NCBI GenBank assembly: GCA_018398815.1
Contig: CM031600.1
Span: 54,043,915 to 54,107,914, forward strand
DNA: 64,000 nt
DNA from: Conus ventricosus
Lineage: Eukaryota > Mollusca > Gastropoda > Neogastropoda > Conidae
Reading direction: 5' to 3'
Shown piece after piece: positions 7,482-40,100 of the stretch (position 1 is the stretch's first letter; each line of letters begins with the position of its first letter). A program made the position numbers and the translations under genes. The notes beneath the pieces were generated by a model. It was not told the DNA's origin. It was given only the letters and a program-made list of their open reading frames with translations, and did not search any database.

Positions 7482-7523
<42 letters not shown>

Positions 7524-8003: not shown

Positions 8004-8044
<41 letters not shown>

Positions 8045-14900: not shown

Positions 14901-17900
14901 TTTTCCATGAGTACGGGGCAAAAAATGTCTCTCACCAGAGAGGTGTCCTTTGATATATAACTGGCGTGGAGAGAGAGGGACATGGATCTGCCTGCCATCT
15001 CACTCTGGGCTGAATCAACTTTTCCCAGCTCTGCAGTAGTGGAATGGGCACTTTTACAAGAAGAGTGATCAAGAGATTGTTCCCACGCTCGTCCTTTTCA
15101 GTGGACAAATGAGGATCACCTGACACTTCTCTCTGACCCCCAAAGTCAGACCTCCCGGGAAATTTTGGGGGACAGGATGGAACGGGGTGAGGCAAACATC
15201 CCTTCCCATGAAATCCCCAGAAATCCACAGCAAAGGGCTAAAGGGTCGGGAACTGGAGACACAGAACTGGCAGCTGTTCATTCCCTATGGCAGTCAACAG
15301 GTCAAAGTGTGGGAATCCAAATCGAAAGAAAGACTGAAAATTGTGGAACTGAAAGAGGCATGGTCTTCTACCAAGGAAAAGGAAAAACTGATTTAGTTCT
15401 AACATGATGCAATGAGGTGAACTCACTAAGGCGATCACTTTAGTTGGCCCATCGGGGAAATTTGCTCCCTGCTCTCCCTTTTTTTCTCTCTTCATTTTGA
15501 AAATACAGTGATGTTCCAAAATGGGGATAAAAGCATTTTTGTTTGGAGGGCAAGTATGGAAAAAATGCTTCCAGAAAATATCTACAATTCATTTAATCTA
15601 AAATGTACAATATGGAAAACAAAAACAACAACAGCAAAAGAGCAGAACAGCATGCCATCATAGCTGAAATGATGACACAAATTAACACACATAAACAAAG
15701 CCACAAACAAAAATTTAAAAACCTATTACTTTTGCAAAATCTTATCAAAAATGGTTCACACCACAAAGAGAAGAAAGGGGCCCCAACAAAACCCCTGGTT
15801 TTGAGTACCTGAGATGACACAGGGCAGAGACCTGATGCCTGTGTCTGTGACACCAAGGGGGCTTCATAATGTCCCCCGCTCGTCTTTGGGCAAGGGACTG
15901 TTCCACCTTCTGGTCCATGGAATGGCCAGCACCCACTCCTTGAGTCTTCAGCTGCTGGACTGGAACACACACACAACACACACACACCATGGAACAGCAA
16001 CATCAAAGACCATATGACGAATACTAAACAGTCAACAACAAAAAGTAAAACAAAAGCAGCAAACCAAAACTGGATTTGTTTCAGAAATCACTTGAAAAGA
16101 TAGAAGAATGAAAGGAAGACTGAGTGAGAGTGAGTGAGGTGAGGGAAGTGGAGGGGGGATAGGTGAGAGAAGAGGAGAATGAAAATGGTTTTTCCAGTCG
16201 ATATTTTAAGGAACAAAAGGGGACAATTATTAAGTGCAAGCATCAAACACTAGAAGACACATTATCTGGTAGAGCGATCTCAAAAGGAAACCTCAGCTAA
16301 TCAGTGTACAGATAAAAAGGCAGGAACTGTAATATGCCGCTCTTGGCTCACCCGCTCTCAACCGGCTTGGCCGGTCTCGGGCGGGCGAATCCAAAAGCGG
16401 CATATTACAGTTCTCTACTAAGCATGACTTTAATAACCAAAAAATAACGACCCTACAAACATCCCATACTGTGTGGGGTTGTCCGTTTTCAATACTAATT
16501 TTAAAAAACTTTTCAGATTTTAGTTTTGCTTAATCCTATGTTTTTCCTGATCATTCTCAATAACATCATTTTAAACGCAAACATTCATCAATGAGTCTCT
16601 GTCTTTCATGTGAAATAAAACTACAGTTTTTTAACGTTCTCTAAAGTCTTTTAAAACTGAGTTATATTTCTGACATAAAATCCACACACTTATCCCAGCA
16701 GTCTTCCACTGAAAGCTAGTTTCGACAAAGCGTTTCTCTTTTTAACTATGTCTCTTTCTGCCGAACAGTCATCTATAATAAATAGTGTCTGCGTTCCTTC
16801 AAAAAATTTTATTAAAAGTGTTCTAAACATCACACTCAGTTTATTGCTAGGATCAACTAAATATATGTTATTATCTGTCCATATAACCTTCAAATCATGA
16901 TATGCTTTTTTCCCAAATTAAGTGTTGGACAGAAAATCACAATATGATCAAAATTATGGGCGATAAACTGTTTGTAATAGGTCTAGATAAATATTGTTTT
17001 CCCACAACCAGTTTGCCCACAAATTAATGAAAAAAGAGGGGTTTTTGTCATAAAGTTTAACTGCTCCATAGTTTTTAATAACAGAATTTAATCTAACCCA
17101 GTTATTATTTTTATCATACTCTCTGTTAAAAAAATTGTTCAGTATAATAAAACCCTACAAGACCCCAAATGTGTAAGATTAATCCAATTTAGTTCTGTAA
17201 GATTGTTTCTATTTAAGTCAACATTGATTTTGTTGCTTGTTGTTATAACCTTAATATCCTCACCAAATTTTGGGAAGAACGACGACAACAACGTTAAGAC
17301 GTTTAAAAGTCTAAGTTTTGCCAGCTAAAATTAATTCCTTTTATAAGGACGTCACTAACGCCCACAACCCCATCCTCCTCTCCACATCTTTAAGACAGAA
17401 ATTTCAAATATCATTGTGAACGTGTCCCTAATTTCCTGTGCGGAAAGAACTGTAATTTTGTAGAAGCTTTTTTTTAAAACCGTTTCTTTTCTGTGGAGGA
17501 TGTACTGTTTTTTCCCATACGGGGTTATTTCAATTTCTTTCCGGCTATTGTCGTCCGCAAAAAGACTTACATGTAAAGAGGCCAGAGTTGAATGCTTTTC
17601 TGAAAAATTTTTGTCGCAAAAAAATGTAAATGGGCTTATGAATTCAAATTTTATTTCCCATTCTAAATTGGTTCTAAATGCCCTTTGAGGTCAGGTTTTC
17701 GAACTATTTTATATTCATACTGGCCAACATTATTTGCTTCTAATTGCGCAGGTTTTTCTAGTTTAGGAAACTTTTTGCTGTCGCCAACCTCTTTAACGTT
17801 TATAATCACCATCTTTAGTGTACTCAAAACCATACAAAGTGCCTATCTCACCATTTTGTTCAAAGTCTGTAACGTCTGCAAGGTCTTTAATTCTAAAGTT

Positions 17901-20900
17901 AACACCTCACAGGCGCTAATGTAACTCCTGATTCTTCTGGCCCACGCGCATTTTTAGTACAACTAATTATTTTTATTTCCAAAACAATGTGCAGGTTATC
18001 ACATTTCACGATTTTACCCGTTTTGTCTGCAATTTTTATATTAAATGATCCGACCTCCCACCAACTAATCTTTTAAACTGTAAATTAGGAATTGTATAAT
18101 TTTCATAATCGCAAATATGCACTTTCCCTATGAAGAGCCTTAAAACAGTTTTAGGCCTTCATCATAAAAAGTTTTTCATCAGTCCAGCTCATCCAAATGA
18201 ACATAGAGTAATGGGAATTAATGCAAAGATCGAGCAATCTTTTTCCCTCATAATAGTTTTTCTGGGGTAACCAACAAATCTTTGAGCTCCTGACTGTTTC
18301 TCCAAACCTAACATTTTTAGCTAGTCTTTAACAAAAAAGTAATTTTGCCCTTTTTCAGGTTTGAATGTTTAAATTTTTTTTAGATTTGCATTGTTAAGTT
18401 TGAGGAGTGATTTTCAAAGTTACTCAATGCTTCTTTAGTGGCAAAACCCGTAATAACCATCAGGTATTGTTAACAGGCTAATTAAATTTCTTCCGCCATA
18501 TTTTTTAATCTTATTATTCTTTTGGTTTGCTTATTTTTAAACCATACAACTTTTTAAAAATTTCATGAAGTGCAAAACCCTTCTGGTTTCCGCAATTGTT
18601 ATCAATAGCATGTTCTAAAAACGAAGGACTGTCTTGAGTTGTTATTGTTTTCAAACATTTTTTTAAAACAAATTAAAAAGGGGCATTCAAATATACTGGC
18701 GCAAAATATTCTGTTGGGCCGCACTACAATCTTAAAAATATAACAACTGAATCTCTTGACATTTCTGTGACCCAGACTGACGCCTTTCAAGTAAAGGTGA
18801 GTACGCCATTAAACAGATAAACTTAACCCTCCTATTTAAAAAAAACTACAAACGCAAAGTGTGGTTCAGTCATCCGATGCAGTTTTATCAGAACCAGTTA
18901 AACTTTGCTGTGTTTTGTGCATCAAACTGGGTGTGGAGTGTCGTATGCTGATCATTTAAATCATCCTGATCCCTTTGTGAGGTCAGTGTACAGATTTCAT
19001 TTCTATTACACCTTCAGGGCGTATTTTGACTGAACGCAAGCGCCATTTCCAAATGACAAACCGTTTAATCCATTCAGCAACAGAATAAACATGAAGGCTT
19101 TTGAAAGGATCTGTAACGAATTCAATATTAAGCTAAGACAGACTTTAGACAAAAGTTGGATCTTAATCATGGCTTAGGCACCCCTTATTTTTGGGGCGTG
19201 CACAGAAAGTATAACTATGACTGGAATCCTCCTTACACATCTTTCTCTTCAGGGACAGCTGTTTACCAGGGTCCATAGAGCAAAGCATAAAACAGCATGG
19301 ACAACATTTATCTTTGACGCTTCTAAGGGCCTAACTAAAGCAGGAATAGAACGAATAAACGACTCTATTTGTACTTACGTTTGGTGTTTGCTAGTTTTGC
19401 AAGCACAAACGAGATCGAGCATAACTGATCCTTCTACTGGCTTTGACGCGCAAAAACAATACTTAGCAAATTTTTGAGGACGCCTTAATTCTACAGTTGA
19501 TTTACCCTTTAAGTATTAAAAGGTACCAAAATGTTTTACAAATACGCAAGATCGAAAATAACTTTGCTGTTGGGACTGGTTTATACATTTCTGCCTTCTG
19601 ACCTCAGACTCCAGATAGCACCAAAAAAAATACAATAATGAAATCCTTGTGGCAGGCAATGAACAGAAATTGGAAAAACGAAATAAATTCTGAGCAGTAA
19701 TATTGCAAGCAGTAAACAAAAGACCAAGAAGAAGTCATTCCAACCCCCAGGTCAAAGCCCGAAGGGCCGTGAAGAACATGAAGTACACGAAGACCACGAA
19801 TTCCCAAAAAAATAAGACCATGGAATATGAAAAGACACAGCGCATGTTTTTGGATTAACTGGCCTAGATTTACTCTCCTTCTTTATTTTACTAAGATAAT
19901 CCCAACCTATTAAGAGAACTAATGCCCTATAAGTGCTCACCATAAAGCCAACTACTTTGCTGCAGTAGACTAAAGCCAGCTAATAACACTCCCTAATATT
20001 ACCTGGTAAAGAGTCTAGAGCTTTACCACTAATAATATTTTTAATAAGCCTGCAAGATTCAATCTGTTTTTACCATGATTTATCAGTCGGAGGCGATGTG
20101 TGGAGGCCACTGACCCGTACCACCGCCGCCTGTCATAGCACACCAGTGTCTTATTACAAATCCTAAGCTGTATAACGCTTGCTAATTACTCCTTGCTCTC
20201 TAAACAGTGTTCCGATTCCGTTCTGCTATAGCCGTTGTGTCTTCATATAAAATTCTTTGATAGTTTCTCTCAATTCTGCACCCTGAGTTCGCAATTGTTC
20301 ACGGTTAGTAGACAACGCTTCTAGTCTTGCCGATCTCTTGTTCAAGATCTTTTAGTCTTTGGGTTATTCTTTCTTAATATCATGTGCCCTAAGTTGGCGT
20401 CATCATCCTAACGAGTTTTTCTTTTTCCTCTTTTTAATATGCTCATCTATTTCAGACCCATTTTTGCAAAATTGTATTGTTAAATCGCCTCTGATGCCTT
20501 CTCAAAGCATGATCAAGGCCGCTATTTCTCGCATGGTACGGGGAATCATTAATTGTTTTAACGCTGTTTCATCGGAAAAACTGGTTTCACTGCTTGCATT
20601 AACATTGTCCCGTTTGACTTTAAATCTTGAAGTTCCATGTTTTGTATTTGGTTAGCTGTTGGTGAGTTCTGTAGCGTGGTTTTGAAGTTTAAGCAACTGC
20701 CTCCCCCTAATTTATGGTTTAACAATGCCAAGGAGGCGATCGATCGCTCACCACTGAGCCTTTGTCTAATTGTATTCATGCCTACAAACTTTGATGGGTC
20801 TCGTTTAGTTGGCTAAGCTGAACAAGTTGTCCTTGTCGTTATCTCACAAACAAATGGTCATCTTTACTTCCAAAATCATCAGGGTATATAGTTTCGGGAA

Positions 20901-23900
20901 GTTCTTGGTCCTAAACTTTTGGTATAATGATCTGACCTTACTTTCTGTTAATTTATACCGCTTGTTGGTAATGTACTCCCGATTTCTGCTAATTCATCAT
21001 GCAATGATAGCCCCGAGCGGTGCTGCTCCAAGGGGAAATCACTACATCGTCTCCAGGATCTAAAACATCATAATCTTCTTCACCTTCATTCCTGCATGTT
21101 TTAAATAATTAAATTTATGTTGTTTATAAAAAAATTCACAAGCAGTAATGGTTCGATTCTTGACCCGCATAGAAAGCTGAAAGAAGCCCTTTGCGTGAAA
21201 GGGGAAAATTAAAGCGGAATATTTCTGGTCCAAATAATCCTTCTACTATTGATGACGGATCAAATCTTACTGTTAAATTTCCAGACCTAGGAGCGGATGA
21301 GTGATTGTGCCAGGCTCTGCGCGCTAACTTTCAAAAATAGAAACTCGCATCAAAACAGACCCAAACAGGACGGTTTGTACAGAATCTGCTGGGGCGGGCC
21401 AAGTCGTTAAGAAAAATTTATCTATAAAACTTGAGGCAAGAATATTTTTTCTTTACACAATGCAACATATTTTTAATAAACCTATTCCTGATCTATGGCA
21501 ACCGCGATGAAATGGATATCTTAACGTTTCAAGGAAATGGCAATGAAGAAGCCTAAACTAGAATAGGTGCCCGAACTCGGCGCAGTGAAAAAAAGCAGCA
21601 AAAAAGTCTTTAGCTCTAAGTTATGCGTATGGAAATCGCTTTTTTCATACCCCCTAAATTTGAGTTGTTAAAAGCGCATGCCCATACTTTCAAGAGCATT
21701 TAAAGACAGATTGCATATGACCTAAACTTTTACTGACTACAATCGTGTTATTAATCAACAGACACCGAAGCCAAGTACAGCATTTCTGACATCTCAGTTA
21801 GAGTTTGACTTTGTTAGCAACCCTAATTTAGCAAGGCTAAATGAGCAACAATATCAGTCAAAATTAGCAATATATTACGAAAAGTATACTTTCATTCTAA
21901 ATTTCCTAAAAGCAGGCAGACACTATATGGAATTTTTAGTTTAGTTGCCACAGCAAGATTCGCTTAAAGGTTTTAGATTGCTGTGTGAAGATGAAGGACC
22001 ATTCGAAAGACCCAAACTGAAAATTTATTAATCCCAAAATAACGAAAGGTGCAATGTACAAATGAGGTTAGTCCAAGACCATCATCACGCTAGCGTGGCT
22101 TAAAAACTTATCAGCATTTTGATGAATAAGAAACATTGTTTGGAGGCGGGAGGGGTAGAAATCCACAGTACACCTGTGTCCCAAAGATCTAACATCTCAC
22201 AAAGCCGTTAGACTGATCATTATTTAACAACGAAATTCGGTTATTGGATTGACCTAAGGTCAACGGAGATAATCTAGTTACATGGAAGCGGAGAACCGTT
22301 AGAGACATAATAAACATTTCAAATTGATAAAGAAAAAGAAGATGTCAATAAACCACTTAATGTATATTTGTTTTAATATAGGATGCGAGCTAAATATCAA
22401 GATAACCGTTAGAAAATATACATACTAAATTTATTTTTATTTAAAAAAAGCATGTCTGTTACGCATTCCCCAAATCCTACAGATTCGCCAAACAAGGGGA
22501 TATAAAAAACCCCTAGCAAAAAAATTTTCAATTCCCAACTTTACACAAAGGGCAGAAGTACTGGGAAAAGCCCTTTCAAAATACCAAAGCCAAACGAAGG
22601 TTTTCTGCTCCCTTTTAAATCGTTCCCTAGTTAATACTGGAGCTCGACTATAAGCGCTGTATCGGCAGGGAAAATTTGGGGGTCTTTAAAAAAGATAGCC
22701 GCACCCCGTTTCCCTTAGGGGGTTTGCTTTACTCTGGGCTGTTTCTTTTAGCTGTAGGGCTGCTAGCAAAAAATAAAAACAAAAACTCCAAAAGCACAAG
22801 TATGGTTCAACAAAAAACAGCTAAACTTATTCCTTCAAGTATAATAAATGCACTAGCTGATAAAACATCAGGGGATGAAGAATTTAGTCTTTTACGGGCC
22901 CCGATTTTGATACTACAAAAGCAAAATTTTGATCTCAAAGAAACGGGGGCAAGTTTTCTAAACAGCCAGACCCCGGCAGATAAAAAAGGAATGTTTAAAA
23001 AAAAGTAAAGAAACTTAAAACCTGTTCTAAAAAAAGCTACATTAACACGCCAAAGGGTGTTTATACTTTAGTTAGAGTCCAACACAAAAAGACCTTTGTT
23101 TTATATTTTAAATTTTTTTTTTTTGTTTAAAAAAATATTTTAGTTAGAAAAAAAACCAATGGATAAATTAATGAAGGGACCAGACGAATTTTTTGAAGCA
23201 ATGCAAAAAATTTATCAAGACATTAAAAATATATTGACTAAATCTTAACCTCAAGCGAACGGGCAGTTTTCCATGCTATTTCTCAATTTTCCGGTAACTA
23301 ACAATAGACCCGCCTTTAAAGTAATTTTACTTTTTAATCGACTTAAAACAAAAATGAAAAAATCTAGAAGTCGGGGTCTAAACTAAAAAACAGACATTCT
23401 TCCTCTAATGACTTAACACCGGGTGGGGACGAACTGCTTACACATTTGATGGGGCCCGCTGAAGAAGCCAAAAAGAGGCTCGGTTGGGGGGGGGCAATCT
23501 TAGAGATAGATTAAAACATTAATAGGGCCCGTTGTACAAATCTTACTTCCACTCCCCAGCTTAGCCCAAAAAAAAAAGCGTTTAAAAACTAAAAAAATTT
23601 TTCGACAAAAAATGTTTTTTTGGGGTGTGTTCTCCAAAGGGCTGCATTAATCCGCAAAAACGCGAGAGAGTGCTAACTATAAACCCTTACATCAATGACT
23701 TAACTTAGGGGAATATCCTTTCTTTTGGGTGGATTCCTTGACATTTGAAGAACAAAACAAACCAAAAACTGTTAATGTATACACAGGGTAAAGAAAAAAA
23801 TCTCTGCCATTAAATTCCAAGAACACCCAAACGTTGGCGAACCAAAAAAAAACATGGACTTACTCGATTTTTTCACCAGGGGGGTCCCCGCATACACATT

Positions 23901-26900
23901 GTACGAACAATGAGTGATTATTGCGGCATCTTCAAAGCATTTCCATAAACAAAATTCTGCGAAAATTTTAACAAGAATTCCATCGCCAACCCCCAAGGAA
24001 AAAAAAACATTTACGCCCAGTTACGTAAACAGAACTAATTACGCCCCCAGAAGGGGAAAAGTTAGTTTAAGAATGGAAAAACTGCAAAATTCCCATACGA
24101 GTTTTCGCAGAATTTAACACTCATTGTTCCCTTTTAAGGGGCCCGCCCCAAAAACTTCGAAAAACAGCTTAATGATAATCACGATTTGTTCATTTGCCTC
24201 TTATTGTCATCGGGTGGCGCTCATTCAACCCAGAATTTACAAGGGGCCAAGCGGGTAGAAATTTTTACAGCGCGCAGCAAGTGGTATGATGTTTAATAAC
24301 TAAAAATCTGAAATCATAATGTCGCCTAAACCAACAACAGTTGACTCAGCCCCACATTGTTTGGGTTTTGGTTTAAAAACTGAAAACCAAGCAGTAAAGA
24401 CCTACCCATTATGGAAAGTTAGAGGCAGCGCACAACAAATGCAAACTTTAACTAAAAATTTAACCAAAGACATGGAAGCGCCTATATTCTTTCAAACTTG
24501 CGAGGGTTTTGAACCTCACCCTTAAAATAAAGCAGTAACCACCCTTCAGGTGTATGCATTTCACAGTCATTTAAAAAGTACAGTGTTTTCACTTTAAAAA
24601 ACATTTTTTTATGCTTATGCAACCCCCGATGGGGTCATTAGAGTCGCTGGCTAGTCCTTAAAGTGCTGCCCAAAACGGGAAAAAATTTTACCCACCTTTT
24701 TAGAAAGGCGTTTTCCCTTAAAGGGCATGAACTTGGGGAAAGGTTTTACAAAAAACACTTCCCCTAAAGGGCGTTCTTTTCTAGTTTAAGGGAAAGGGGA
24801 TCAGTGATTTAATTTCCAAATGCTCAAAATGCGGGCAGAAGTTAAATTAAAAATGGGGGCTAAACATGACTCATACTTGATGGCCGTGTATGTTTTGTTG
24901 GCAAAGTCTTTTAAAACATAGAAAGACCTGCAGAAACATTACGCCCGATCCCCGCTTACATTTCTCGCCCGGGAATAGTTGGGGCCTTTTTAAAGTTTTC
25001 TGGAGTACAATTGTTTATTGTCTGACCTACCAATGCTTCAATATAAAAAAAGGGTTGCGTGGAGGAATTAGTATGGCGTCGCATCATTACTGTAAAGCAA
25101 ACAACAAATACTTGGACGATTATGATCCGAGTAAAAGGTCTAACTATCTCATGTATTTAGATGCAAACAATCTGTATGGTTGGGCTATGGCGCAATCTGC
25201 TTCCATTAGCAACTTTAAAATGTACATGGTGGTATTAAAAAACATTCAAGAATTTGTAGAACATCTGCATACTCTTACAGTGATCGTAAAGAGGTCTTTT
25301 TTCTAGAAGTTGACTTAGAATATCCTCTGAACTCCATGCCCTGCATAATGACTATCCATTAGCAGCAAAAAGTTAAAGACGAACCCAAAGAGAGCCGCCT
25401 AAACTTGTGCCTAATCTTCGGGGGCAAAAAAAATTATGTCTGCCCATTACAGCTTCTGCAATTTTATTTAAGACAGGTTTGAAGTTGCAGCAGTTCATCG
25501 TTTAATTGCTTTTGATCAAGAACAGTTCATGAAACCTTTACATCATGAAGAACACTGATCTCAGAACAAAATCCACAGATGCTTCAGAAAAGACTTTTTC
25601 AAGCTAATGAACACAGCTGTTTTGGAAAGACTATGGAGAACCCGCACACGCGCAAAGATGTTAGATTGGTCCCCAGGAAAACGAAGAATTAAGCTGACTT
25701 CAAAACCTAATTTCGGGACTTCAGAAGATTTCTGATCAGCTTTTTGGCATAATGATGAAAAAAGAAAGTCAAATTGGACAAACCTGTATTTATTGGGTGT
25801 ACTGTTTTAGAATTATAAAAGCTTTTAATGTTAGAATTTCTTTATGAATACTTTAAGCCCTGTATCCAGAGTCCAGAGTACTTTACACAGATACAGACAG
25901 TTTTGTTATAGATATCCTACTGAAACATCTAAAAAAGACATGGAAATCGAAGGGGCCCTTAAAGGACTGCGGGATGGTTTACGACAAAATCGTTTAAACC
26001 CGAAAGATTCGCCTTTGCATTCAATTACTAATAAGAAGGTTTTAGGAAAGATGAAGGATGAATTATTGGAAGGTGATTAAGGAGTATGTGGGGTTAAGGT
26101 CGAAAATGTACAGTATTTCTAGCCAGGGGGAAAACCATTAAGAAAGCAAAAGGATATCTCGCAGTGTTGTGCAGTCGGCATATCGCATGACAACTATAAA
26201 GAAGATTGTTTGACAATAAGACTTTTCATCATGACAACGTAAAACTGCGATCTAATCTACATGAGTCAACCAAATGTTGTAACAAAGAAGTCATTAGATA
26301 GAACAAACACAAAAGGGTGTTTGTTAATCCAGAGTTTTCTATGAAATTGGACATGGAGAACGGAAATAATTACATACCATCTTCATATTCCTCAAGTTTT
26401 TTTATAAAAAGGGATATTCTTTCCCATTTGCAATCAAATTTGGAATTTGGGCAGCGGGCGATCTGGATGCCGATGAACCCCCGCAAATGTTACCTTAATA
26501 GTAGAACTCGTATCATATGATTCCGTATAAATTTCCCCAGGTCTCTTCCTTTATCGTTCTTGTTTCATTCTGCGCTTCCATTTTTTGTAAATTAAAAATT
26601 AATTAAGCAACTGGAACTGTGTCTGGGTGGGATTATCTGCGTTCTTCCTTCACAAAAGATCTTTGAGGAGCTGGTTGTTTTGTTGTGTCAGTTTCTGTAA
26701 ATAATACACGGGCGGGTTTCATCTTTACAATTCTTTTTATTTCATATGGATAAAACACTCCAAACTGGATCTGTTGCCCTGATGCGAGTGTCCCCTTCTG
26801 CTTCCCCCGGTAAATAAGGTACCTTACTTTCAAACCAAATGGTAATAGTTTGCCGGATGAAGACTTCTCCTTCAAAAACATCTATTGTTTGTTTTTGATT

Positions 26901-29900
26901 GCTTGTACTGGTTTTAGCCTTTAAATTCTTCATTTTTCTTTGCGCGCAAAACTGAGGGCAATCTTCTAACCCATCTGTGTTGCGAGAATTTTTCAATAAG
27001 CTCTCTGTGATACGGGTTTGGGAAAAGTCTTTGGCTAAACTGTTTGTTAAAGTTTTCAACTAAACCCTGTGATCTGTGAACCCCTGGAATGCCTTTTTTA
27101 ATGGTAACTCTCTATTTTTTAACAATAATTGATTCACTTGACCTTTTTTTTTTTTTTCCCATCATCGACTTGAATCATGCGAGGATAAGTTAAGGGGCCT
27201 CGTTGGTTATCGGGTTGTATAGCAACAGCAACAGCAGAAGCACTTTTTGTGTTAATGGTTCCGCATTTTGTATCTTGAAGCTATGTCAAGGGACTGTGAG
27301 TGCGTTCTTAAATCTTTTCGTCTGATGTATCATGGGTAATATAGAAGGTCCATTGAGGGGTGTCTTTTGGGTTGTTTGACAAAGTGTGTCTCTGTATTCG
27401 TCTAGGTGCAGGTAAATAAATTTCCCAAAATCGCTTGTTTAGATAACCATTCCTTTGCTGTTTGTTCACTGACTCCCGCTGCTTGGCTTTGCTTTTTGAT
27501 TGCCGTGATTCCCTTCCAATATCCTTTTGACGAATAATAAATTTTGTTCATTTTTATTCAGCCAATATTAGCGCAACAAAATACAGACGGTCTGCCAACA
27601 ACAATAAACGCGATTTCTTGCAACTTGTTGTTTTTCTGATGGATGATAAAAGTCACTGAATTTTGGTGGGGGCAATGTCTCGTTTGGGGTTTGCCTGTTA
27701 CTAGTTAATCTCTTTATTGCTTGGTCAACATCTTTAAATGTGTAAGCTGCATGTCCTGTTTTTTGTTTGTTTTAATGAAATCAACTGTGATCTCTGCTTT
27801 TAAAGGGTTATCTTGTGGCAGCGGGCTGTTGCTCCATAGCTTTGTATGTCTTTTCTCTCCCCGTCGTCCGTAGTTTACTAACGCTTTATTACTTCGCTAA
27901 AGCAAGGCTTTCCCCACAGCGCCCCCTATCATATTATGAGTGAGCATTTTTTATAATGTTTTTTATTTCATATTTATACTGTCTGGAATATTCCTTGCTT
28001 GACTAGAAAATCTTTCGTAGCAAACGAAAGCTGCAAGATAGCAATTAGCTTTGCTGAACCTCAAAGCCTAGCTTGCCAAGATCTGCCGGTTTAATCTTAA
28101 CAAGCTTTTACCAAGCATTGTGTATCTATACTTAGGCCCCTCCCATAACAGCAGAATGGTATACAAGGTTGGCAACAGTTTTTTCAGCCTTTTTAAAAAA
28201 ATAAAATAATAATAATTAATAAAAACATGAACACGATGATCTATTAAACCTTCCAAAACTTATGATTACAAATGACCAGGTTGATGAGCAAGCTTAATGC
28301 CCAAAAAAGGAAGACTTTTATTCTTTGGCGGCATGTGGAAAAACAAAAACAGTTCTCGGAACTGAATTCAGCATAGAACAGATTCAACAAGATTCGCCGC
28401 AAAGACATTATAAAGTTCATAACAGGTTGAAGCGCAGCTGGGGTCGAGAATGGTGAAAAGTGGGAGGACAAACGGTTCTTAGTTTTTACACTAAACTAGT
28501 CAGTAGATTTCTCCCATTGATTCTGAACAAGATTTTATGTATTGATTTAACGGGAGGATCCAGTTTTAACAAAGTCATTAGAGTCTCTGGATGTGATTTA
28601 TACTACAGATTTTGGGAACCCTTGTTATCGCCCTTAATCATGGGATTAATTACTTTTAATCATTAGATTTTATTTCCCCTTTAAAATGAAAGAGCCCGAA
28701 AAACAGCAGAATCAGAAAACACTGAAACAGGTGAAAGTGGTCACTAAAACACCTCATCCTGGACGCATTGCGGCAGGAAAAAAATTAGCTGAGTGGAACA
28801 AACAAAAAAAATTACAATTACAGAATATAACTCATCATGAAAACATAACACCGCCAACGCCAAAAAGTTGATTCAATGCAGCTATAAAAAATCCATATGA
28901 TTCAAGACTACAGCGCCAAAGTCTTCATGGAATATTGAACTTAAAAAACTGTTGCCTTTTTAGGCCCTTGCTGCTGTTGGGGGGGGTTATTACGGTTATA
29001 AAATATTAAAGAATGGCACCAAAAACCAAAGAAATCAAAACAACCTGAACCGCTAAATACAGAAGACAACAGCAGCCAGAAACGCAACAACAAAAGAACA
29101 TTTTGATCCATTTCAGATGCAATATATTTTAAGAACTTAATTTTAAATTTTTTAATAAACCCCTGGCGGATTATTATTTGTTGAAGTCAATAAATAAAGT
29201 ATGGAGTCTATAAAAGACATTTCCATAGACCAGAATTGTAATCAATGCGGTTGCTTAGGATGTAAGAACTTCATTAAGATCTATGCTGACATCTCGACGA
29301 TGACGAGTTTTTTGAGGCGTGTGTGTTTTCTATATTAGACATTTATATTTAAGATAAAAACATAGATTGTATTTTTTTTTTTTTTTTTGATAATTATAAA
29401 ATTAACTTGAATAAGAAAATTAGTTGTACTTAGAGGATGACTTAATTACAATCTTAGGTTAACTTGGGTAAGAACTTGAGGATGACTTGGGGGATGACTT
29501 GGGTAGAACTTAAAAGTGACTTGGGGTGACTTAAGGATGACTTAAGTAAGAACTTAGAAGTGACTTAAGGAAAGACTTGAGGACAACTTGAGTAAAAACT
29601 TAGAAGTGATTGAGGATGACTTGAGTAAGAACTTGTGGATGACTTAAGGATGACTTAGAAGTGATTGGAGTAACTTCAGTTAAGAACTTAGAAGTAACTT
29701 GGTGTGTGCATGCGTGGGGTGGGGGGCAGCAGGGTGGGTGGGAGTGGGAGGTGGGCGCGCACCTTTGATTATTATAAGAAACGATGTCCAGAATATGATA
29801 TAGTTATTATCAGTAAAACAACAACCCAAAGACAGCAGCGCAAACAACAAAATAACAGCATATATACAAGCACGTCGCACGCACACACACAACACAAGAT

Positions 29901-32900
29901 AGGGAGGTGCTTGCATGGAGAATGGGAAAGGGTTTTATGGTTGGCGCTTGAGCGCCGTAAATTCAAAACGGCTGTCGGTCTCTCTGTCAACTGAAGATTA
30001 TTCAAAGCGGCCCCCAAGTGCATTTATCAAAAGCTTGATTTAATAAAAAGACAGTTAAATAAAGTACCTCTGTGGCCGCTTGAAAAGTTGAAGCACGCAC
30101 GTCTAAACAGGCAAACACAACAGCAAAAGTCATTTTTCATATATACAAAAATCATGGGGCAGCAACAGAATGCCAGTGAATCAGCAGTGTTCCAATACAG
30201 GTTGACCTATTTGAGCGCTACAGGCAGTTGTGCGACTACTTCAGTGTTACAAGCAATGACAAGTATTGCTATGCTTCGCTGGTTTTTTCTCTTGCGATGA
30301 TTGCTGGTTCTATCTTGCGATAATTGCTGTGCAGAGTCAGGAACATTGATGTGGGTTTTTTTCTCGGCCCCGTAGTTCCGAGCTCTGGTTATGCATAAAC
30401 CCTTTTTTTTTAGAATCATGTCATTTCCCCTTGCTGGGTGGTTTGTGACAATGCTCTACTGCGAATGTTGCTGTCAAGTCGGCTAGCATATGCGGTCCTG
30501 CAGTTGAGCTTGGGTAACAACATCTTTCATTTTTCCAAAGTAAACAAAATATTCATGCAACAACCCGCTTTTCTTCCCAGTCCAATTGTAAGCGATGGAG
30601 GTGGCAATGTAGTAGATGCAGTAGATGGGCTGAGGTATTGGTTGTTGAGTAGGTTCAGTACTCATGATTGGGAAATAAGTGACGTTTCTTGAAAAGAAAA
30701 ATCCAAAAGAGTTGATGTGCACGTTGAAACTCTAATTTCCTGTGCTAATTCTTGTGAAGAAGACTACCTAGTAAATCCCTCTCTTCTTCTGAAAAAAATG
30801 CTATCTTGGACATGGTATCAAAACAGCAAAGTTTAAAAGTCACAACGCTTTCCTAACTGGAAATCACACACAGTCCGTCTTTTACACCCCCAGCACCCGG
30901 AGAAATGACCCAAAAACACTAGGCTAGATTGCTAACAACACAAGTGTTGGGCGGAAAAATGTCGTCACTGTTACTAATCAGCTGATTCTGTCTAGTCTTG
31001 TGATTGGGGGAAGGTAAAAAAACAGTTTTGATTTTTTGTTTTATGAAAGGCGGGAATGACTGAGCAAAATCCTTTCAGCCCCTTATAGAAATCTCGCTAT
31101 TCGAATGCAGGCAATAGAAATCGATCGCTATTCATAACTGCTGACTGGCTTTACAAATCCAACGGTGCAGAGTGGAGACCGCTTGCTTTGCTCTGAATGC
31201 TTCTATTGAAATCTCTGGGGAGTGCCGCGCTTCACTGCATGCCTTTAAAAAACAACCTGCATAGCCAATCTCTCTCACCTGCAGCTGTGTGTGTGTGGAT
31301 TTTTGTCAGAAATATAATTCGGTTTTAAAAGACTTTAGAGAACAGTTAAAGAGTGTAGTTTTATTTCACATGAAAGACAGAGATCATTTGACGAAAGTTT
31401 GAGCGAAAATGATGTTATTGAAAATGATCAAGAAAAACATAGGATTAAGCCAAAACTAAAATCTGAAAAGTTTTGTAAATTAGTATTGAAAACAGATAAC
31501 CCTACACAGTAGGGATGTGTGTAGGGTCGTTATTTTTTGGTTATTAAAGTCATGCTTAGTAGAGAACGGTATTATGCCGCTTTTGGATTCGCCCGCCCGA
31601 GACCGGCCAAGGCGGGGTGAGAGCGGGTGAGCCAAAAGCGGCATAATACCGTTCTCTAAGGCGTTTGTCTTCTTGTTTTTCAAGCAGAGGAGTGTCAAAC
31701 AGGAATGTGACCTCACTGTACTTCACAACATGACAGGATTTCTCAGGCCGAGAGTCTCAAAGAGGAAAGCAACATGACTGCGCTTTACTGTGAGGTTGTG
31801 TCTCTCAGGTGGGGAGGTACAAAAGGATGTAGTCATGTGACTGTACTCACAGTGAGACAAGGGGTTTTCAGGGTGAAAGGCTCTCGACAAGGCATGCACC
31901 ATGACTGTATTTTAAAGTCAGCTGGGATTTCTGAAGCTGGGGGTTGTCCATGGGGCCCCTTGGGTGACTGGAGTAACAGCAAAGAAAGTGTTTCTAAAAG
32001 AGGGATCTGAAATGGAACCTGAGGCCAGTGTACTCACAGTGAGGAAAGCTTTTTCTGGCAAGGGGATCTCAAAGGGGATGTCCGTTTCCTGGAAGTCACT
32101 GTGATCCAGCATGTCCAGTGTGCCTTCCTCAATGGCCTGTAATTCATCAAACAGGGTTAGCTCTCTAACATTACACCTTTTGATTCCGATTTGAAAAAGA
32201 ATATTTCTCATCTAAAGAAATGAACACAACCTATACAGTCCACACTTAAGAAAAAAGAAAAAAAAGATCAATTTAAAAAAAAAATCACGTTAATTATCTT
32301 AAGAAGAACAAGCCCAACCCAGCAGAACATGCATGGTTATTTCATGTGAGATCATTACCGCCATATGTATATTATCAGTTTGAAAGAAAATAGACAATGT
32401 TACAGTGAATGGAATACTTCTCTCTACATCAGATAATGTTACAACAAATGGAATATTTCTCTCTTCATTCAATCAGCCAATGCTTGCAGCCCTTTTTACA
32501 TTGTTATCAGCATAGCATAAGACTCTGGTTACCTTTCTTATGGTATTCCATCAGAGCACACAAAGTGAATCGCAAATTCAGTGTGGCCTATCCCCCTTCC
32601 CGTCCTCCACGAACACACACATGCATTACCTCACTGATGTCCAGGTATCTGTTGAGGAACACGAACGCCATGTTCTCCCAGCCAATATTCTGTTCAGAGT
32701 AAAACACAAAAAGAAATATCTTTCAACAGTTTAATTTCTTTCACAATGAAAACAACAGCAACAACAACAACAAAAAACTTTATAAGGCGGAGGAGTGCAT
32801 GTGAGTGAATTTGCATTTTTATGTGATTGAGTGAGCAAGAGAGAGAGAGACTGGAGAGAGAGAGAGAGAGAGTGTGTGTGTGCATGTGCAAGCATGTATT

Positions 32901-33984
32901 GTTTTCACCTGAAATAAGTGTGTGATATCTGTACTGCTATAATGAGACCTATTCAAAACTTATTTCTTACATTCAGCAAACATCAGAAAAAAAAAAAAAG
33001 ATTAACAAAACGTTAAGAACAAGCCTGCTCCAGTATCCTGTCTTCAGTACAGAAAGGTGGGTGAGAAAGAAGAAGACAAAAAGAAACGAGAAGAAGGGCA
33101 TGGAGAATACCACAGAATAAACAAACCCTACCCTGCAGACAATGCCAGCCTCATAGAAAGCCTTGTCTGCTGGCACTACATCGGTGTGTCGGAGCATAGA
33201 CACACTGAGTTTAGCAGCGATGCTTTCCAGGGACTTCTGGCTGAGGGCGGCACTGCGTGTGCAGTAGTAATGCGCAATAAGCATCATCGTCTCAAACTCT
33301 TCATGCTGCGGGCTGTTGGCATCGGATGATTTGGTGAAGTTCTCATGCTGGAAAGACAAAAAAAAATCACTCACCTCATTTCTTCACCTCTATGTCATGT
33401 TCATTAAACTGATTGAACTCAATGGTTTTAAACTGAACTTAATGAATCTTAAATAAATGTTAGCGAACCGCCCAGAGAACGTGGACAAACGAGTCACAAG
33501 ACAAAACACAACGCGTTTCGACCTCTTAGGTCTTCGTCGGGTGATACATAAACGAAAAAAACAACCAAAATTCACTTAGCTTTGATCGCTTCAGATCGCT
33601 TAGGGTTCAGCGCAAGGAAGAAGGCGTTGAACTTAATGGTTTTAAATCACACAGATTAAAAGACAAGCAAGACACGAATGGTTCATTTACCTCACATTCA
33701 ACACAGATATATGTGTAATTATTTATGTACCTAAATTCTGTCATTACTGTGTGATTGGTCCATCTGTATTGTAAGTTATATATGAAGAGCTTATGCTCGG
33801 AATTTGAAACGAAATGTTAGCAGTTAGCATGTTTCATGCAACAGTGCCTCTAAAGTTAGAAAACAAAATACAACAAAACAGAACGGAACACAGCTTACTC
33901 ATGAATGCCTATTTCTCCTCACCTCTTCTCTATTAATCACCTTTTGATTTACATCTTTCTCCTCTTAGACTCTTATCTTCTTTT

Positions 33985-34026
<42 letters not shown>

Positions 34027-34090
34027 AAAGAGAGAGACAGACAAACAAGAATGTGTGCGTGTGTGCGCATGCGCATGTGTGTGTATGCAT

Positions 34091-34137
<47 letters not shown>

Positions 34138-37100
34138 TTTTTCTGCATGGTTTCCGTTTTAGTGCTGCTCCTGACAATCTGTTTTATCATGCTTCTTTAT
34201 TATAACAGGCACTGCCAAGTAGATATCAATGCCAAAACTGGTTCCTTCAAACTACAACGTCTGATCAGTGTAGTTTTACAAACACTTACGTGTGTGCAGG
34301 CACTCACCAAATCAAAGAGCATGTCTCTGAGGTCAGCCCACACTCTATAGGCCTCAGGCTTGTTCAGGTCCCTCTTGTTGATCATGTCCGTGAAGATACG
34401 CTTGTAGATGTTGAAGTTCTGAAAGAAGCAACACTTTCAAAACTCTCCCATAATATGTACTGTTTGTAAAATTCTCTCAGAAAATGCTCAAAATGAACAA
34501 GAAACTTCGAACCAAGTCACATTACTCCAAAAGAGTATCAGGAAAAATGTAAAGTTCTGTGAGTCAATGATTTTAGGAACTATCTAAGTGTAAACAGATG
34601 TTCCTGCCAAAGGGTGAGACGGGAGACAGGCAGACTAGCTATTTTTCTGGTCAGTGACATGTGGTCAGTTCCAGTTGTAAGTGAACAAGTGTGAAAAGGA
34701 ATTTTACTACTTAAATGATTTCATGGTATATCTTACCTGTCCAAACAAATGCCTTATCTCTACTGGTCGTGGAACAACCCCACAGACATGGAACAACATA
34801 AAATTCCCACACAAAGATTAAACTGAGCAATTAAGTAGTGGGGGAAAACAAGTGCAGGTCAACAATTCTTCAGTCGTTATAGTAATGACTTGGCAAAGAT
34901 TTGAACTTAAAAAAAAAAATATATATATAAGATGAAGAAAATGGGGGAATATATTATAACTATGAGAAGCCCTTCACTAGCCGCCCGAGGGAACCATCAT
35001 AATCTCTCTCAAAGGCACATTTATTTGTATTGCCTGCTCCTAGGCCTTTCGTCCGCTGGATCGGACTCATCAGGGAGACACGGCTGATTGTGTCTGTGCT
35101 CTTGGTGTCAAATAGAGACACACCACAGTCCACAATTCTGTGGTGTTCTCACTGCCAAGGGTTCAAAAAAAGAATCCAACAGCACCCCCAAAGCAGCCAG
35201 CGAAGGGTAGTAAAATGGAACAAAGCAAAGGTGTGGAGAGGAAAAAAGTTGCTGAAAAACTAAGAGCATTATTCAAACAGTTCTTTGAGCCTATGCTTGA
35301 GGATCCATTCAAGGATGCAAGGGAGGTCAAAAGATATGGAACAGTGTGAGTGGTCAGCTCTGCTGTTCAATAACCCAAGCATTGTGAGTGGCTAAGAATT
35401 GTACAGAACAACCTTTACTTGGATCTCTTAAGAGATGCAATCTCCCACTGATTGACCAAACAATAGAATGCTGAGCAATTAAGTAGTGGGGGAAAACAAG
35501 TGCAGGTCAACAATTCTTCAGTCGTTATAGTAATGACTTGGCAAAGATTTGAACTTAAAAAAAAAAATATATATAAGATGAAGAAAATGGGGGAATATAT
35601 TATAACTATGAGAAGCCCTTCACTAGCCGCCCGAGGGAACCATCATAATCTCTCTCAAAGGCACATTTATTGTATTGCCTGCTCCTAGGCCTTTCGTCCG
35701 CTGGATCGGACTCATCAGGGAGACACGGCTGATTGTGTCTGTGCTCTTGGTGTCAAATAGAGACACACCACAGTCCACAATTCTGTGGTGTTCTCACTGC
35801 CAAGGGTTCAAAAAAAGAATCCAACAGCACCCCCAAAGCAGCCAGCGAAGGGTAGTAAAATGGAACAAAACAAAGGTGTGGAGATTAAACTGGAGAGGTC
35901 AAATGTGGCACAAGCTATTGTAAGTGTGAAGATGTCAAACATGCAAAACAGCATGGACCATGTTCATTTTGGTTGTTCATGTAGCAATGGATTTCAGTTT
36001 GTGTTGCCCCACCCCAGACTTTTCAGAACATTTTCTGTTTTTAGAAATAATGTTCATTTCAAAGATGAAAAAAAGTGAAGGATGTTGGAAGACATTGGAA
36101 AAATGTGCAAACACTAATAAAATTGAAGACAGGACAGACAACAAACGAAGATTTCACAGAAATGCAAACCCACCTGTTGTTGAGCAGGTGCTCCATACTT
36201 GGCGTACAGCTCCATAGCAGCATCAGAGTTACCCCCTTTGATGAGACTTGAGGCATACAGTGCAACATATTTGTGAAGTACTTTGAAGTTGTTCTGAAAA
36301 AAGAAAAGTCAGTGTACTGTATTCAAATACAAAAGAGACAGCATTTTTTAAGACACCGAAAGATACATTTTAAGCAACTGGAGATAAAAAAACAAAACAA
36401 TAATGACAGCAAACAGACAACACAGATACAAAACCTTTTGCATACATAATTTCACATACACACCAACAGTGCAGAAACAGTCTGAACTTCCACAATGACC
36501 AGCTCCCCTCCCGACACACCCTCCCCCTTTCTTAAGTCCCCACTCCATCCCCATGCCTACCTATCCCCAGCACTAAGCGCACGCGTGCACACACACACAC
36601 ACACAACACACACACAGCTTCAGGTTCCATTCTTTTTTACAACAGAGATATCTACATGTTTAACCTTTTTTTTCCATTAGAGAAGTTCAAGTTTTCAAGA
36701 ATATGAATATCTTTTCATTAGACACTCTGGTAAAAAACTTAACGCTAAAACCAGACTATGGCATTTCCATAATGAATCCTCTTCAATTGTTCTTCCATCA
36801 GCATTTCTAACAGACCTGTTGCTCGGCCATCTGCAAACATTTGTCCCACTCTCCTTTGTCTGCAAACATGTCAAGAGCTCCTATCACGTCCACATTAGCC
36901 AGCTGAAACATGCAGTCATGGTACTGTTAGTAAAACGCCCAAGAATACAAATCATGCACAAATGAAATAACCCCAAACACATGCAATTTATAAAGAAATA
37001 CACAGCACACATGATCAAACCTGAGTGCTGGGAATCAGTTGATAAAAAAAATCATTCTCCATAAAAAATGGTTATTCTGGAAACTTTCTTAGTTCATGAG

Positions 37101-40100
37101 TTTCTTAACAGAACACTGAAAGCTTCCTATCAAAAAATGAATAGCATTTCAGCATGATCAAATATAACTCTTAGTGCATGACAGCGTTGAAATTTTCAGA
37201 GGTGAATCTCACTCTTGTTGATACCATCTTGTAACGCTGATATGAAGGTGGTTTGTATACCAAAACTGAACCGACTTTTATTTTAATTATGAATAAGCTA
37301 CACACAACTTTATTGACGCAATGTAATTCAATGCAACCATCCTGTTTTTGCTGCTGTACATATAGTTCAGGGCCGAAACATTTGTCTGGNNNNNNNNNNN
37401 NNNNNNNNNNNNNNNNNNNNNNNNNNNNNNNNNNNNNNNNNNNNNNNNNNNNNNNNNNNNNNNNNNNNNNNNNNNNNNNNNNNNNNNNNNNNNNNNNNNN
37501 NNNNNNNNNNNNNNNNNNNNNNNNNNNNNNNNNNNNNNNNNNNNNNNNNNNNNNNNNNNNNNNNNNNNNNNNNNNNNNNNNNNNNNNNNNNNNNNNNNNN
37601 NNNNNNNNNNNNNNNNNNNNNNNNNNNNNNNNNNNNNNNNNNNNNNNNNNNNNNNNNNNNNNNNNNNNNNNNNNNNNNNNNNNNNNNNNNNNNNNNNNNN
37701 NNNNNNNNNNNNNNNNNNNNNNNNNNNNNNNNNNNNNNNNNNNNNNNNNNNNNNNNNNNNNNNNNNNNNNNNNNNNNNNNNNNNNNNNNNNNNNNNNNNN
37801 NNNNNNNNNNNNNNNNNNNNNNNNNNNNNNNNNNNNNNNNNNNNNNNNNNNNNNNNNNNNNNNNNNNNNNNNNNNNNNNNNNNNNNNNNNNNNNNNNNNN
37901 NNNNNNNNNNNNNNNNNNNNNNNNNNNNNNNNNNNNNNNNNNNNNNNNNNNNNNNNNNNNNNNNNNNNNNNNNNNNNNNNNNNNNNNNNNNNNNNNNNNN
38001 NNNNNNNNNNNNNNNNNNNNNNNNNNNNNNNNNNNNNNNNNNNNNNNNNNNNNNNNNNNNNNNNNNNNNNNNNNNNNNNNNNNNNNNNNNNNNNNNNNNN
38101 NNNNNNNNNNNNNNNNNNNNNNNNNNNNNNNNNNNNNNNNNNNNNNNNNNNNNNNNNNNNNNNNNNNNNNNNNNNNNNNNNNNNNNNNNNNNNNNNNNNN
38201 NNNNNNNNNNNNNNNNNNNNNNNNNNNNNNNNNNNNNNNNNNNNNNNNNNNNNNNNNNNNNNNNNNNNNNNNNNNNNNNNNNNNNNNNNNNNNNNNNNNN
38301 NNNNNNNNNNNNNNNNNNNNNNNNNNNNNNNNNNNNNNNNNNNNNNNNNNNNNNNNNNNNNNNNNNNNNNNNNNNNNNNNNNNNNNNNNATAAAAATTTC
38401 TGTTTTTTAAAAAAATCAAGAAAAAAAAACAAAAAAATTTCAACATATAGATAGAACTTTTAAAGAAAAAAAAAAAAGCAGCAAAATGACACATCTGCAA
38501 GCATACACATATGTACATCATAAAAAAATGAACCCACAAACACACACGATGTAATTACAGATTCAGTTACAATCACCTCACAAAAAATTTTTTCAAACCA
38601 AGCAGTTGACTGTGTGACACATTTTGACCTTTAATTTTAACAGCAGCAATAATTTAACTTGTTTTCATGAGACATATCACAGACATGTTGCACATTTTTT
38701 TGAACTTCAAATGAGAAACCAAAGCCCAATGATCTAAACACCATTTGAATCAGTTTCTGAAATAAATAATCATAAAACCACATGCAGATTGAGTAGACCC
38801 CTGTCTTGTCCCAATTCATTTAACCTCTAAACAAGAAAAAAACGAAACAACACCAAAACAAAGTAAAAACAAACAAACCGAAAACCCCTAACCCAATAGT
38901 CCTACCCATCTGTTTGCTAAAGACCACCTATACAGTACAACCATGGACGGAATTGCATGTAAATACACTTTACTTTTATGTGGACATCACAGAAAAAAAA
39001 AATCTTATACAATAAAAGACAATGGACCACAGAAATAAAAATCTTATACAATAGAAGACAATGGACAAGTAGTTGAAAACTTGCCTTTTTCAAGCAAAAA
39101 AAACTTGTCTTGTATGTCCTTTACATCATCTTCTCCAACACATTTTAGGGAAAAAAAAAGAAAAACCATAAACACCCCTCATTTGTCAGTATAACTTTTC
39201 TTTTCAAGCATTGTATTCTTGGACGGTTGTTGTCTTTGTCATGGATATCAATTTGCCCATGAAAGGAATTTTCTATCCCCCCAAACAGGTTACTAGCCGG
39301 GGCATTAGCACAAACATGAGGAATTACTTCATGAATGACAAGCAGAATAGTCACAATGTTTGGAGCCCAATCCGAATGCAACAGCCTGAAAACTGGAGGA
39401 TCAGGAATGGATAGTGTGTGAAGAGGAGGGTGACCAGCAGTTGGGGGCGGGGGGGGGGGGTGGGGGGGGGGTGTAAGGGTGCATTGGGGTGGTGAAGGGG
39501 CTGTATGGGGTAAAAGAATAGGGTGGGGGGGGGAGTGGAGATGGAAGCTCACGGGAAAGGGAGTAGCTGGGTTTGGGGGCTCCACACCATTTCCAAAAAA
39601 ACTTGAGTACACCTGCAGCTCAGGGCTGTGTGACACCTGAAAAAAAAAAGAACAAACATTCATTTCTTTCTTTCATGCTTGATCATTCATTCATTTTTGT
39701 TCTAAATTTGCTGCGTTTTTCTATCCTCAAACTGTGTGAAATAAAAATGTAAAAGAACTGATGGATGGCAAGAATGAGAGAGGGGAAGTAGAGTATTAAA
39801 AATGTCATGTCAAACTACCATCCATCCCAAAAGGGATGAGGAGGAAGGCGATGTGTGATTACCTATTCCCAAATCTCATTTTCACATGCTGCCTTCCATT
39901 CTCTGGTCTTAGATCACAAACAAAAAATGTTTTAATAGATGGATCCATTCACACCTTCCCTGTCATTAGCTTTCATCTGGCATTGTTACTGTCTAGATTC
40001 AATTTTTTTCCCCTAGCCAAAAAAAGGCCTTTGCAAGAAAAATATTTACACCATGCAACAAAGAAAAATATCCATAAAAGTGGAGGGTTTAAATTTTGTC

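What the first reader, a model, noticed from the sequence alone, without database searches (positions are those of the whole stretch)
16322..31657. A 15.3-kb Polinton caught with both filled and empty alleles in the same assembly
Copy A has the element with AAGGC duplications; copy B reads straight through the same site. Presence/absence at one locus implies an insertion still segregating, or a recent loss, so this Polinton was active on a population time scale even though this copy is broken.
Basis: partly seen in the sequence, partly recalled or inferred. Interest (0 to 1): 0.85.

Follow-up and report, generated by a model that had tools for sequence, protein, structure and literature searches.

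The report
One-haplotype Polinton with covarying palindromic ends
A 15-kb virus-like transposon sits in one copy of a gene and is missing from the other copy, apparently because two versions of the same place were laid end to end by the genome assembly, and the transposon's family has unusual self-folding ends whose two halves change together.

Summary
A 15,336-bp element (16322-31657) is flanked by AAGGC on both sides, and copy B (38390-53850) reads through the same site with one AAGGC at 43916-43920. Best reading: allelic contigs scaffolded in tandem across a 1000-N gap, inside the gene IFT172. Two exon pieces occur twice, and the clean part of B differs from A by 4 substitutions in 1,514 columns. 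Most of the 7-11% A/B "divergence" looks like homopolymer-type noise. A third overlapping contig lies upstream and stops 100-180 bp short of the site.

"This copy is broken" is not shown: the window's element is itself noisier than four of five other copies compared. It belongs to a large Polinton family (protein-primed polymerase, rve integrase, A32-type ATPase, probable capsid protein). Left ends at different sites can be identical, so the family probably moved recently. "Still segregating" is likely but unproven without reads.

Two features stand out. 14 of 14 copies with both ends found have 5-bp, not 6-bp, target duplications. Ends start with a ~97-bp palindrome whose arms covary across 68 ends, suggesting arm-templated copying of, or selection on, a terminal hairpin.

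The parts
16322..31657 (.). Polinton-type element (filled allele), 15,336 bp
   Evidence: TIRs, TSD, genes, empty allele in copy B
16317..16321 (+). left target-site duplication AAGGC
31658..31662 (+). right target-site duplication AAGGC
16322..16689 (+). left terminal inverted repeat
31291..31657 (-). right terminal inverted repeat
16322..16416 (+). left terminal palindrome (foldback)
   Evidence: -35.7 kcal/mol, z -9.9
31561..31657 (-). right terminal palindrome (foldback)
   Evidence: -39.1 kcal/mol, z -10.6; 26/26 arm match
16646..17075 (-). packaging ATPase (A32-like), in pieces over several frames
   Evidence: vs L113 ORF (E 1e-33); that ORF is Pox_A32 at E 7.4e-15
17431..17986 (-). conserved element ORF of unknown function, in pieces
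   Evidence: vs L110:6018-6590
18204..18660 (-). conserved element ORF of unknown function, in pieces
   Evidence: vs L110:5362-5823
20073..20874 (-). conserved ORF in pieces; 545 relatives in public proteins, function unknown
21132..22152 (+). probable major capsid protein, in pieces
   Evidence: vs L110 ORFs; protein family; fold matches of a low-confidence model of a relative
24914..26265 (+). protein-primed DNA polymerase B, pieces in more than one frame
   Evidence: best E 6e-24
26691..27430 (-). rve integrase, in pieces
   Evidence: (E 4e-11 to 8e-5) vs L006 ORF, which is PF00665
10748..16321 (.). copy A, left flank
31658..37389 (.). copy A, right flank up to the gap
37390..38389 (.). 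gap of exactly 1000 N
38390..53850 (.). copy B (empty allele), noisy up to about 52.1 kb
43916..43920 (+). single AAGGC at the empty site
36186..36269 (-). IFT172 exon piece in copy A (also 52643-52726 in B)
36816..36893 (-). IFT172 exon piece in copy A (also 53272-53349 in B)
54426..54491 (-). next IFT172 exon piece towards 5', outside the overlap, present once

Best explanation
A Polinton (polintovirus) inserted into an intron of IFT172 on one haplotype; the other haplotype of the sequenced individual (or pool) is empty. The assembler built the haplotypes as separate long-read contigs and the scaffolder put them one after another, so the alleles look like a tandem duplication. The integrase made a 5-bp staggered cut (AAGGC). 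The family has moved recently. Shown: exact TSD, empty site, element genes, gap, duplicated exon pieces, near-identity where B is clean, noise, 5-bp TSDs in the copies examined. Inferred: that A and B are alleles, that absence is the ancestral state, that the insertion segregates in the population.
For: Exact 1000-N gap between the copies. Two IFT172 exon pieces occur twice while the three 5' ones looked for, which lie outside the overlap, occur once (exact-peptide search); the stretch 36100-37000 is found full length at these two places only (40 of 333 candidates scored). Clean part: 4 substitutions in 1,514 columns. Noise signature in B: 123 of 132 (right) and 105 of 162 (left) substituted bases equal a neighbour in B, against 19 and 61 in A; all six stretches that I took as exons have indel columns. 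The upstream contig and B agree against A in 137 columns, compatible with a second haplotype in two pieces, though many of these lie at 14.4-16.1 kb and look like noise in A. Gaps between duplicated pairs on one scaffold, and raw-read-long duplicates with errors, are described marks of false duplication (PMC9516828, passages). Ends without substitution at different sites. 14 of 14 copies with both ends have 5-bp TSDs.
Against: Three overlapping contigs, not two, cover 10.7-16.1 kb, so one is redundant unless the upstream contig and B belong together. The noise is not one-sided everywhere: in a three-way alignment of 10.76-16.14 kb the A/B counts are 176 against 126 of 330, upstream contig against A 125 to 113 of 257, and over window 1-10407 A is the noisier side (102 against 60 of 142). 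No read depth, k-mers or Hi-C could be checked. The bases right after AAGGC in B are garbled. The two TIRs of this copy are 8.8% apart, and its ends have 7 and 4 singleton substitutions against a median of 1, which would mean an old insertion if TIRs start identical and the sequence is right; but each TIR is closer to ends of most other copies than to its partner (rank 61 and 62 of 65).
Confidence: 0.77

Rival explanations
1. Real tandem (segmental) duplication of part of IFT172, with the element inserted into only one of the paralogues.
For: Three copies of the left flank lie in a row on one scaffold.
Against: Both breaks between copies that I could read are 1000-N gaps; the copies would repeat internal exons of one gene; in the clean part substitutions are 4 in 1,514 columns; differences elsewhere look like read errors and put indels into exons.
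Confidence: 0.11
2. An ancestor lost an old insertion exactly, for example by recombination between the two 5-bp TSDs, leaving an empty-looking site.
For: One AAGGC remains; TIRs 8.8% apart.
Against: Precise loss of 15 kb through 5 bp is improbable a priori (own judgement); TIR divergence is a poor clock in this family. I saw no scar, but B is too garbled after AAGGC to exclude one.
Confidence: 0.06
3. Pool or mosaic: DNA of several individuals, or a somatic difference in one, gave the two forms.
For: B is so noisy that it may rest on very few reads.
Against: B also lacks a 1.06-kb insertion and carries 5.3 kb that A lacks, which suits a distinct germline haplotype better than a somatic change; a pool is not excluded.
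Confidence: 0.05

Closest known systems
Polinton/Maverick (polintovirus) elements
   Same: Protein-primed polymerase B, rve integrase, A32-type ATPase, probable jelly-roll capsid protein, TIRs of hundreds of bp, 15-kb size, termini starting AG.
   Different: 5-bp instead of 6-bp TSD (14 of 14; vertebrate Mavericks: 6 bp and simple end motifs, PMC8097293 passages); ~97-bp terminal palindromes with covarying arms.
Polinton-like viruses and EMALE virophages
   Same: TIR-flanked elements, many with an integrase; TSDs of 5-6 bp reported for PLVs (PMC12220804 passages); empty and EMALE-containing alleles were compared across host strains (PMC8547959 passages).
   Different: Host here is an unnamed eukaryote, probably an animal (IFT172, BEL/Pao element; inference); Polinton-type polymerase; relation to virophages not tested.
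Parvovirus-type hairpin telomeres
   Same: Terminal palindromes able to fold back (works-like comparison only, from general knowledge).
   Different: No parvoviral gene was specifically sought; bidnavirus repeats are said not to form hairpins (PMC4061559 passages). Not a membership claim.
Casposons
   Same: Some TIRs contain internal palindromes; elements that encode PolB (PMC4046053 passages).
   Different: Prokaryotic, Cas1 integrase.
False heterotype duplication in assemblies
   Same: Adjacent duplicate separated by a gap, part of a gene repeated (PMC9516828 passages).
   Different: Here the haplotypes differ by a whole 15-kb element.

Membership tests
Polinton/Maverick | own protein-primed DNA polymerase B (called the defining feature in PMC4046053) | tested here: met
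   pieces 24.9-26.3 kb, E to 6e-24; also 5 of 5 other copies opened
Polinton/Maverick | RVE integrase | tested here: met
   pieces 26.69-27.43 kb; 5 of 5 other copies opened
Polinton/Maverick | packaging ATPase | tested here: met
   family ORF in L113 is Pox_A32, E 7.4e-15; window pieces
Polinton/Maverick | double-jelly-roll major capsid protein | tested here: inconclusive
   points to yes: model of relative P0132 (mean pLDDT only 51) matches capsid or scaffold entries in all 50 listed PDB rows, but with TM-scores of 0.33-0.40; 12 of 32 viral rows with E up to 0.001 are named capsid proteins. Nothing in Pfam or convincing in PDB by sequence
Polinton/Maverick | cysteine protease, minor capsid protein | tested here: inconclusive
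   none found in the ORFs scanned
Polinton/Maverick | TIRs of hundreds of bp, 15-20 kb size | tested here: met
   seven other copies paired from the listings are about 15-26 kb long
Polinton/Maverick | 6-bp target-site duplication (typical, not universal) | tested here: not met
   5 bp in 14 of 14 copies with both ends; 5-6 bp is reported for PLVs. So filed as a 5-bp variant, not as a canonical member
False heterotype duplication | gap between duplicated pair on one scaffold | tested here: met
   second gap upstream
False heterotype duplication | haploid read depth, 1-copy k-mers, discordant read pairs | not testable with these tools
   no reads held

The most novel reading that the evidence does not exclude
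These Polintons replicate or mend their termini through a hairpin: the inner arm of each ~97-bp terminal palindrome templates the outer arm (or the reverse), so arms within one end stay complementary while variants spread, and a single element can carry two different end types, as the window copy does. That would add a fold-back step to the protein-primed replication assumed for Polintons.
Probability: 0.33. Interest if true: 0.75.

Novelty: new variant of a known kind. Interest (0 to 1): 0.58.

Why it matters
A filled/empty pair gives exact element boundaries and target duplication, which shows that both unlike ends belong to one insertion. The family gives a natural test of how Polinton ends are copied: dozens of copies with paired arms that change together. 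It is also a warning: homopolymer noise and unmerged haplotypes can mimic decay and gene duplication in long-read assemblies.

Tried and rejected
Pfam on 20 stop-free pieces of the window element: no hit at E 0.5. Viral-contig scans with the polymerase piece, a motif, and one full polymerase: no relative; an alignment of three polymerases found 2 loci; a terminal-palindrome pattern found none. Phage records: no match. Rfam and tRNA scans: none. Relatives L009 and L010 matched the window in the polymerase only at E 0.05. Dating the insertion by its TIRs was rejected because partners are often not nearest neighbours. Reading A/B divergence as age was rejected because it looks mostly like noise. 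Ancient paralogy was rejected for the clean part. I first thought copy A clean; searches show that parts of A and the element are noisy too.

What was counted: the searches scored 40 left-end and 40 right-end places, the window's own included (first-look candidates 6,999 and 3,700). I fetched 38 of the 39 other left ends and 22 of the 39 other right ends, found 6 more right ends in 20 stretches searched at the expected distance, and added the window's two: 68 ends. All were chosen by likeness to the window copy. R2_L030 and R2_L024 were left out (66 of 68 ends; 12 of 14 pairs). Two of the 68 ends (L063, L071) are the same insertion on two contigs. Control column pairs are only those with at least 5 changes each; ancestral states were resolved arbitrarily where tied.

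Papers: 10 seen as passages only, none whole; others only as listing lines. Searches for Polinton or Maverick with hairpin, palindromic, polymorphic, heterozygous or empty site, two others, one that returned nothing and one on false duplications: I recognised no paper on covarying terminal palindromes from titles and starts of abstracts, but several listings showed only part of the matching papers (for example 12 of 41 and 12 of 60), and the library holds open papers only.
Full report
WHAT WAS CLAIMED AND CHECKED. The finding says that a 15.3-kb Polinton lies in copy A with AAGGC duplications while copy B reads straight through. A self-comparison of the window gives A 10748-16321 = B 38406-43920 (93.0%), A 31684-34454 = B 43932-46623 (88.8%), A 34460-34825 = B 51982-52348 (95.7%) and A 35882-37389 = B 52338-53850 (99.3%). 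The element runs exactly from 16322 to 31657 with AAGGC on each side, and B has one AAGGC at 43916-43920. The bases directly after it in B are garbled, but both flanks continue. The empty junction is found full length once in the 3.52-Gb genome (4 of 4 candidates scored).

WHY A AND B ARE PROBABLY ALLELES LAID END TO END. Between them is a run of exactly 1000 N. The region is the gene IFT172 on the minus strand: pieces that I took as four exons together match PDB 8bd7 IFT172 at E 1.6e-16. Two of them occur in both copies (36186-36269 and 52643-52726; 36816-36893 and 53272-53349), while three pieces further 5', outside the overlap, occur once; this was a search for exact peptides, which noise would hide. 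A search with 36100-37000 finds it full length at these two places only; 40 of 333 candidates were scored, and the other 58 matches are at most 53 bp long. Where B is clean, it differs from A by 4 substitutions and 7 indel columns in 1,514 columns. Elsewhere B carries what looks like sequencing noise: in the right flank 123 of 132 substituted bases equal a neighbouring base in B but only 19 of 132 in A, and in the left flank 105 against 61 of 162. All six stretches that I took as exons from their translation have indel columns. Gaps between duplicates on one scaffold and raw-read-length duplicates with errors are known marks of false duplication (PMC9516828, passages seen).

A THIRD CONTIG. 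A search with 12700-13400 found a third copy upstream of the window at 96% (12 of 12 candidates scored). It belongs to a stretch that overlaps window 1-16142 at 94-95%, also matches what lies left of the window, ends 100-180 bp before the element, and is followed by another 1000-N gap. In a three-way alignment of 10.76-16.14 kb 4,695 columns agree; B alone differs in 346, the upstream contig in 267, A in 137, all three in 23. Many of the A-only columns lie at 14.4-16.1 kb and look like noise in A. The neighbour test is weaker on this alignment: A/B 176 against 126 of 330, upstream contig against A 125 to 113 of 257; over window 1-10407 A is the noisier side, 102 against 60 of 142. So noise is patchy in all contigs. 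The simplest reading is that the upstream contig and B are two pieces of the second haplotype; this is inference, and three copies in a row is the strongest point for a real duplication.

WHAT THE ELEMENT IS. Twenty stop-free pieces gave no Pfam hit. Polymerase relatives found by a motif in public contigs match 24.9-26.3 kb in pieces at E down to 6e-24, and an integrase ORF of L006 (PF00665) matches 26.69-27.43 kb on the minus strand. The same two genes were found in 5 of 5 other copies that I opened, with E-values down to 1e-145 and 1e-77; in one of them, L109, the polymerase reached only 2e-8. A family ORF is a Pox_A32 ATPase at E 7.4e-15 and matches window 16.65-17.08 kb. Another pair of ORFs matches 21.1-22.2 kb; the first of the pair has 118 relatives in public proteins. 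A low-confidence model of one relative (mean pLDDT 51) matches PBCV-1, vaccinia D13, iridovirus and Melbournevirus capsid or scaffold entries in all 50 listed PDB rows, with TM-scores of 0.33-0.40; 12 of the 32 viral rows with E up to 0.001 are named capsid proteins. That these are double jelly-rolls is recalled, and single chains were not checked. So it is a Polinton by polymerase, integrase and ATPase, with a probable capsid protein. Protease and minor capsid were not found.

IS IT BROKEN? The longest stop-free stretch is 141 aa, no longer than in shuffled DNA (95th percentile 147 of 200 shuffles). But over the polymerase-integrase stretch the window copy has 5.5-5.7% gap columns against four other copies, which have 1.1-2.1% among themselves, and its substituted bases copy a neighbour 156:89, 174:91, 161:75 and 163:70 times; a fifth copy, L109, is noisier than the window. 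The sequence of this copy is therefore not reliable enough to call its genes broken. I make no statement on how they would read without noise.

RECENT ACTIVITY. The family is large: 40 of 40 scored candidates matched for each end, the window included, out of 6,999 and 3,700 first-look candidates. Left ends at different sites with unlike flanks show no substitution over 357 aligned bases in one pair and one in three pairs, with one or two gap columns. That supports recent movement independently of the filled/empty pair.

5-BP TARGET DUPLICATIONS. In 14 of 14 copies with both ends found, including the window, the duplication is 5 bp (the script printed 4 for the window because its first base is misplaced in the alignment, direct reading gives AAGGC). 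Vertebrate Mavericks are reported with perfect 6 bp (PMC8097293 passages); PLVs with 5-6 bp (PMC12220804 passages).

COVARYING TERMINAL PALINDROMES. The first ~97 bp of each end of the window copy fold back on themselves (z -9.9 and -10.6; the next 100 bp give 0.16 and -2.6). In 68 aligned ends 50 have 22 of 22 matching arm positions, 57 at most one mismatch; 9 have more than two, apparently mostly from an indel that shifts the arm. At arm position 8 (T, A or G) the arms agree in 64 of 68 ends with 25 changed on both sides (shuffles 29.3 agreeing); at position 9 in 68 of 68 with 2 changed (64.1); at position 12 in 65 of 68 with 18 changed (40.1); the other 19 positions have no double change. 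Shuffles ignore relatedness. On a tree of 66 ends from the TIR outside the palindrome, changes at pair 8 fall on the same branch in 12 cases (18 outer, 18 inner), at pair 9 in 2 (2, 2), at pair 12 in 8 (12, 10); 153 control column pairs share a mean fraction of 0.10 and at most 0.60. Recombination among copies could inflate these counts. The left and right ends of the window copy carry different types, each with matching arms, as do those of one other copy of the 14, L030.

HOW IT MOST LIKELY WORKS. Integration by the rve integrase with a 5-bp stagger fits the gene content and the duplications. For the palindrome, arm-templated copying during replication or repair of a folded end explains why several letters are tolerated so long as both arms agree; selection for a hairpin or for two copies of a binding site is the main alternative; template switching by host replication at each copy is less likely because variants are shared by many copies. 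None of these steps is shown. A parvovirus-like fold-back is a comparison of working principle only; bidnavirus ends are said not to form hairpins (PMC4061559 passage).

DATING. The window's TIRs are 8.8% apart, but each ranks 61st or 62nd of 65 ends in closeness to its partner; the other 11 pairs kept are 2.3-8.8% apart with partner ranks from 1 to 65. The window's ends also have 7 and 4 singleton substitutions against a median of 1, from age or noise. TIR divergence is thus a poor clock here. The insertion should be younger than the split of the two haplotypes if it is a simple polymorphism.

VERDICT. Observation confirmed; interpretation partly supported. The allelic pair is probably an ordinary assembly effect revealing a heterozygous Polinton; the family's ends are the more surprising part.

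Noticed in passing
54942-61269: BEL/Pao LTR retrotransposon on the minus strand with two 182-bp LTRs 100% identical and a 5-bp duplication CACAG; domains RVT_1, Peptidase_A17, DUF1759, Integrase_H2C2, DUF5641. Looks recently inserted, also between exon pieces of IFT172.
   Followed up: partly
34826-35881: 1.06-kb insertion in copy A, absent from B, with direct repeats of about 415 bp at its ends (99%) and ATTAAACTG on both sides: a second presence/absence difference.
   Followed up: partly
about 46650-51965: 5.3 kb in copy B only, GC about 0.6 and very rich in G and C runs, with inverted repeats near its ends (35 nt, 83%): either a third insertion difference or very poor sequence.
   Followed up: partly
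L099-L103 (G000:C6:54005441-54024604): Third contig overlapping the left flank of the locus, ending 100-180 bp before the insertion site.
   Followed up: partly
window 6000-8000: Patch where copy A and the upstream contig differ most within window 1-10407 (25 and 52 substitutions, 58 and 84 gap columns per kb), with many long single-base runs: probably unpolished.
   Followed up: no
L063 and L071: The same insertion of this family with the same flank on two unplaced contigs, left ends without substitution over 354 bases: another likely unmerged duplicate.
   Followed up: no
L085 (right end of copy L030): Right TIR interrupted by about 400 bp, so its distance to the left end (0.305) is an alignment artefact; the two ends are of different type.
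   Followed up: no
L110:3160-3993: Element ORF with 545 relatives in public proteins, several on megabase-size contigs, no Pfam match above its cut-off.
   Followed up: no
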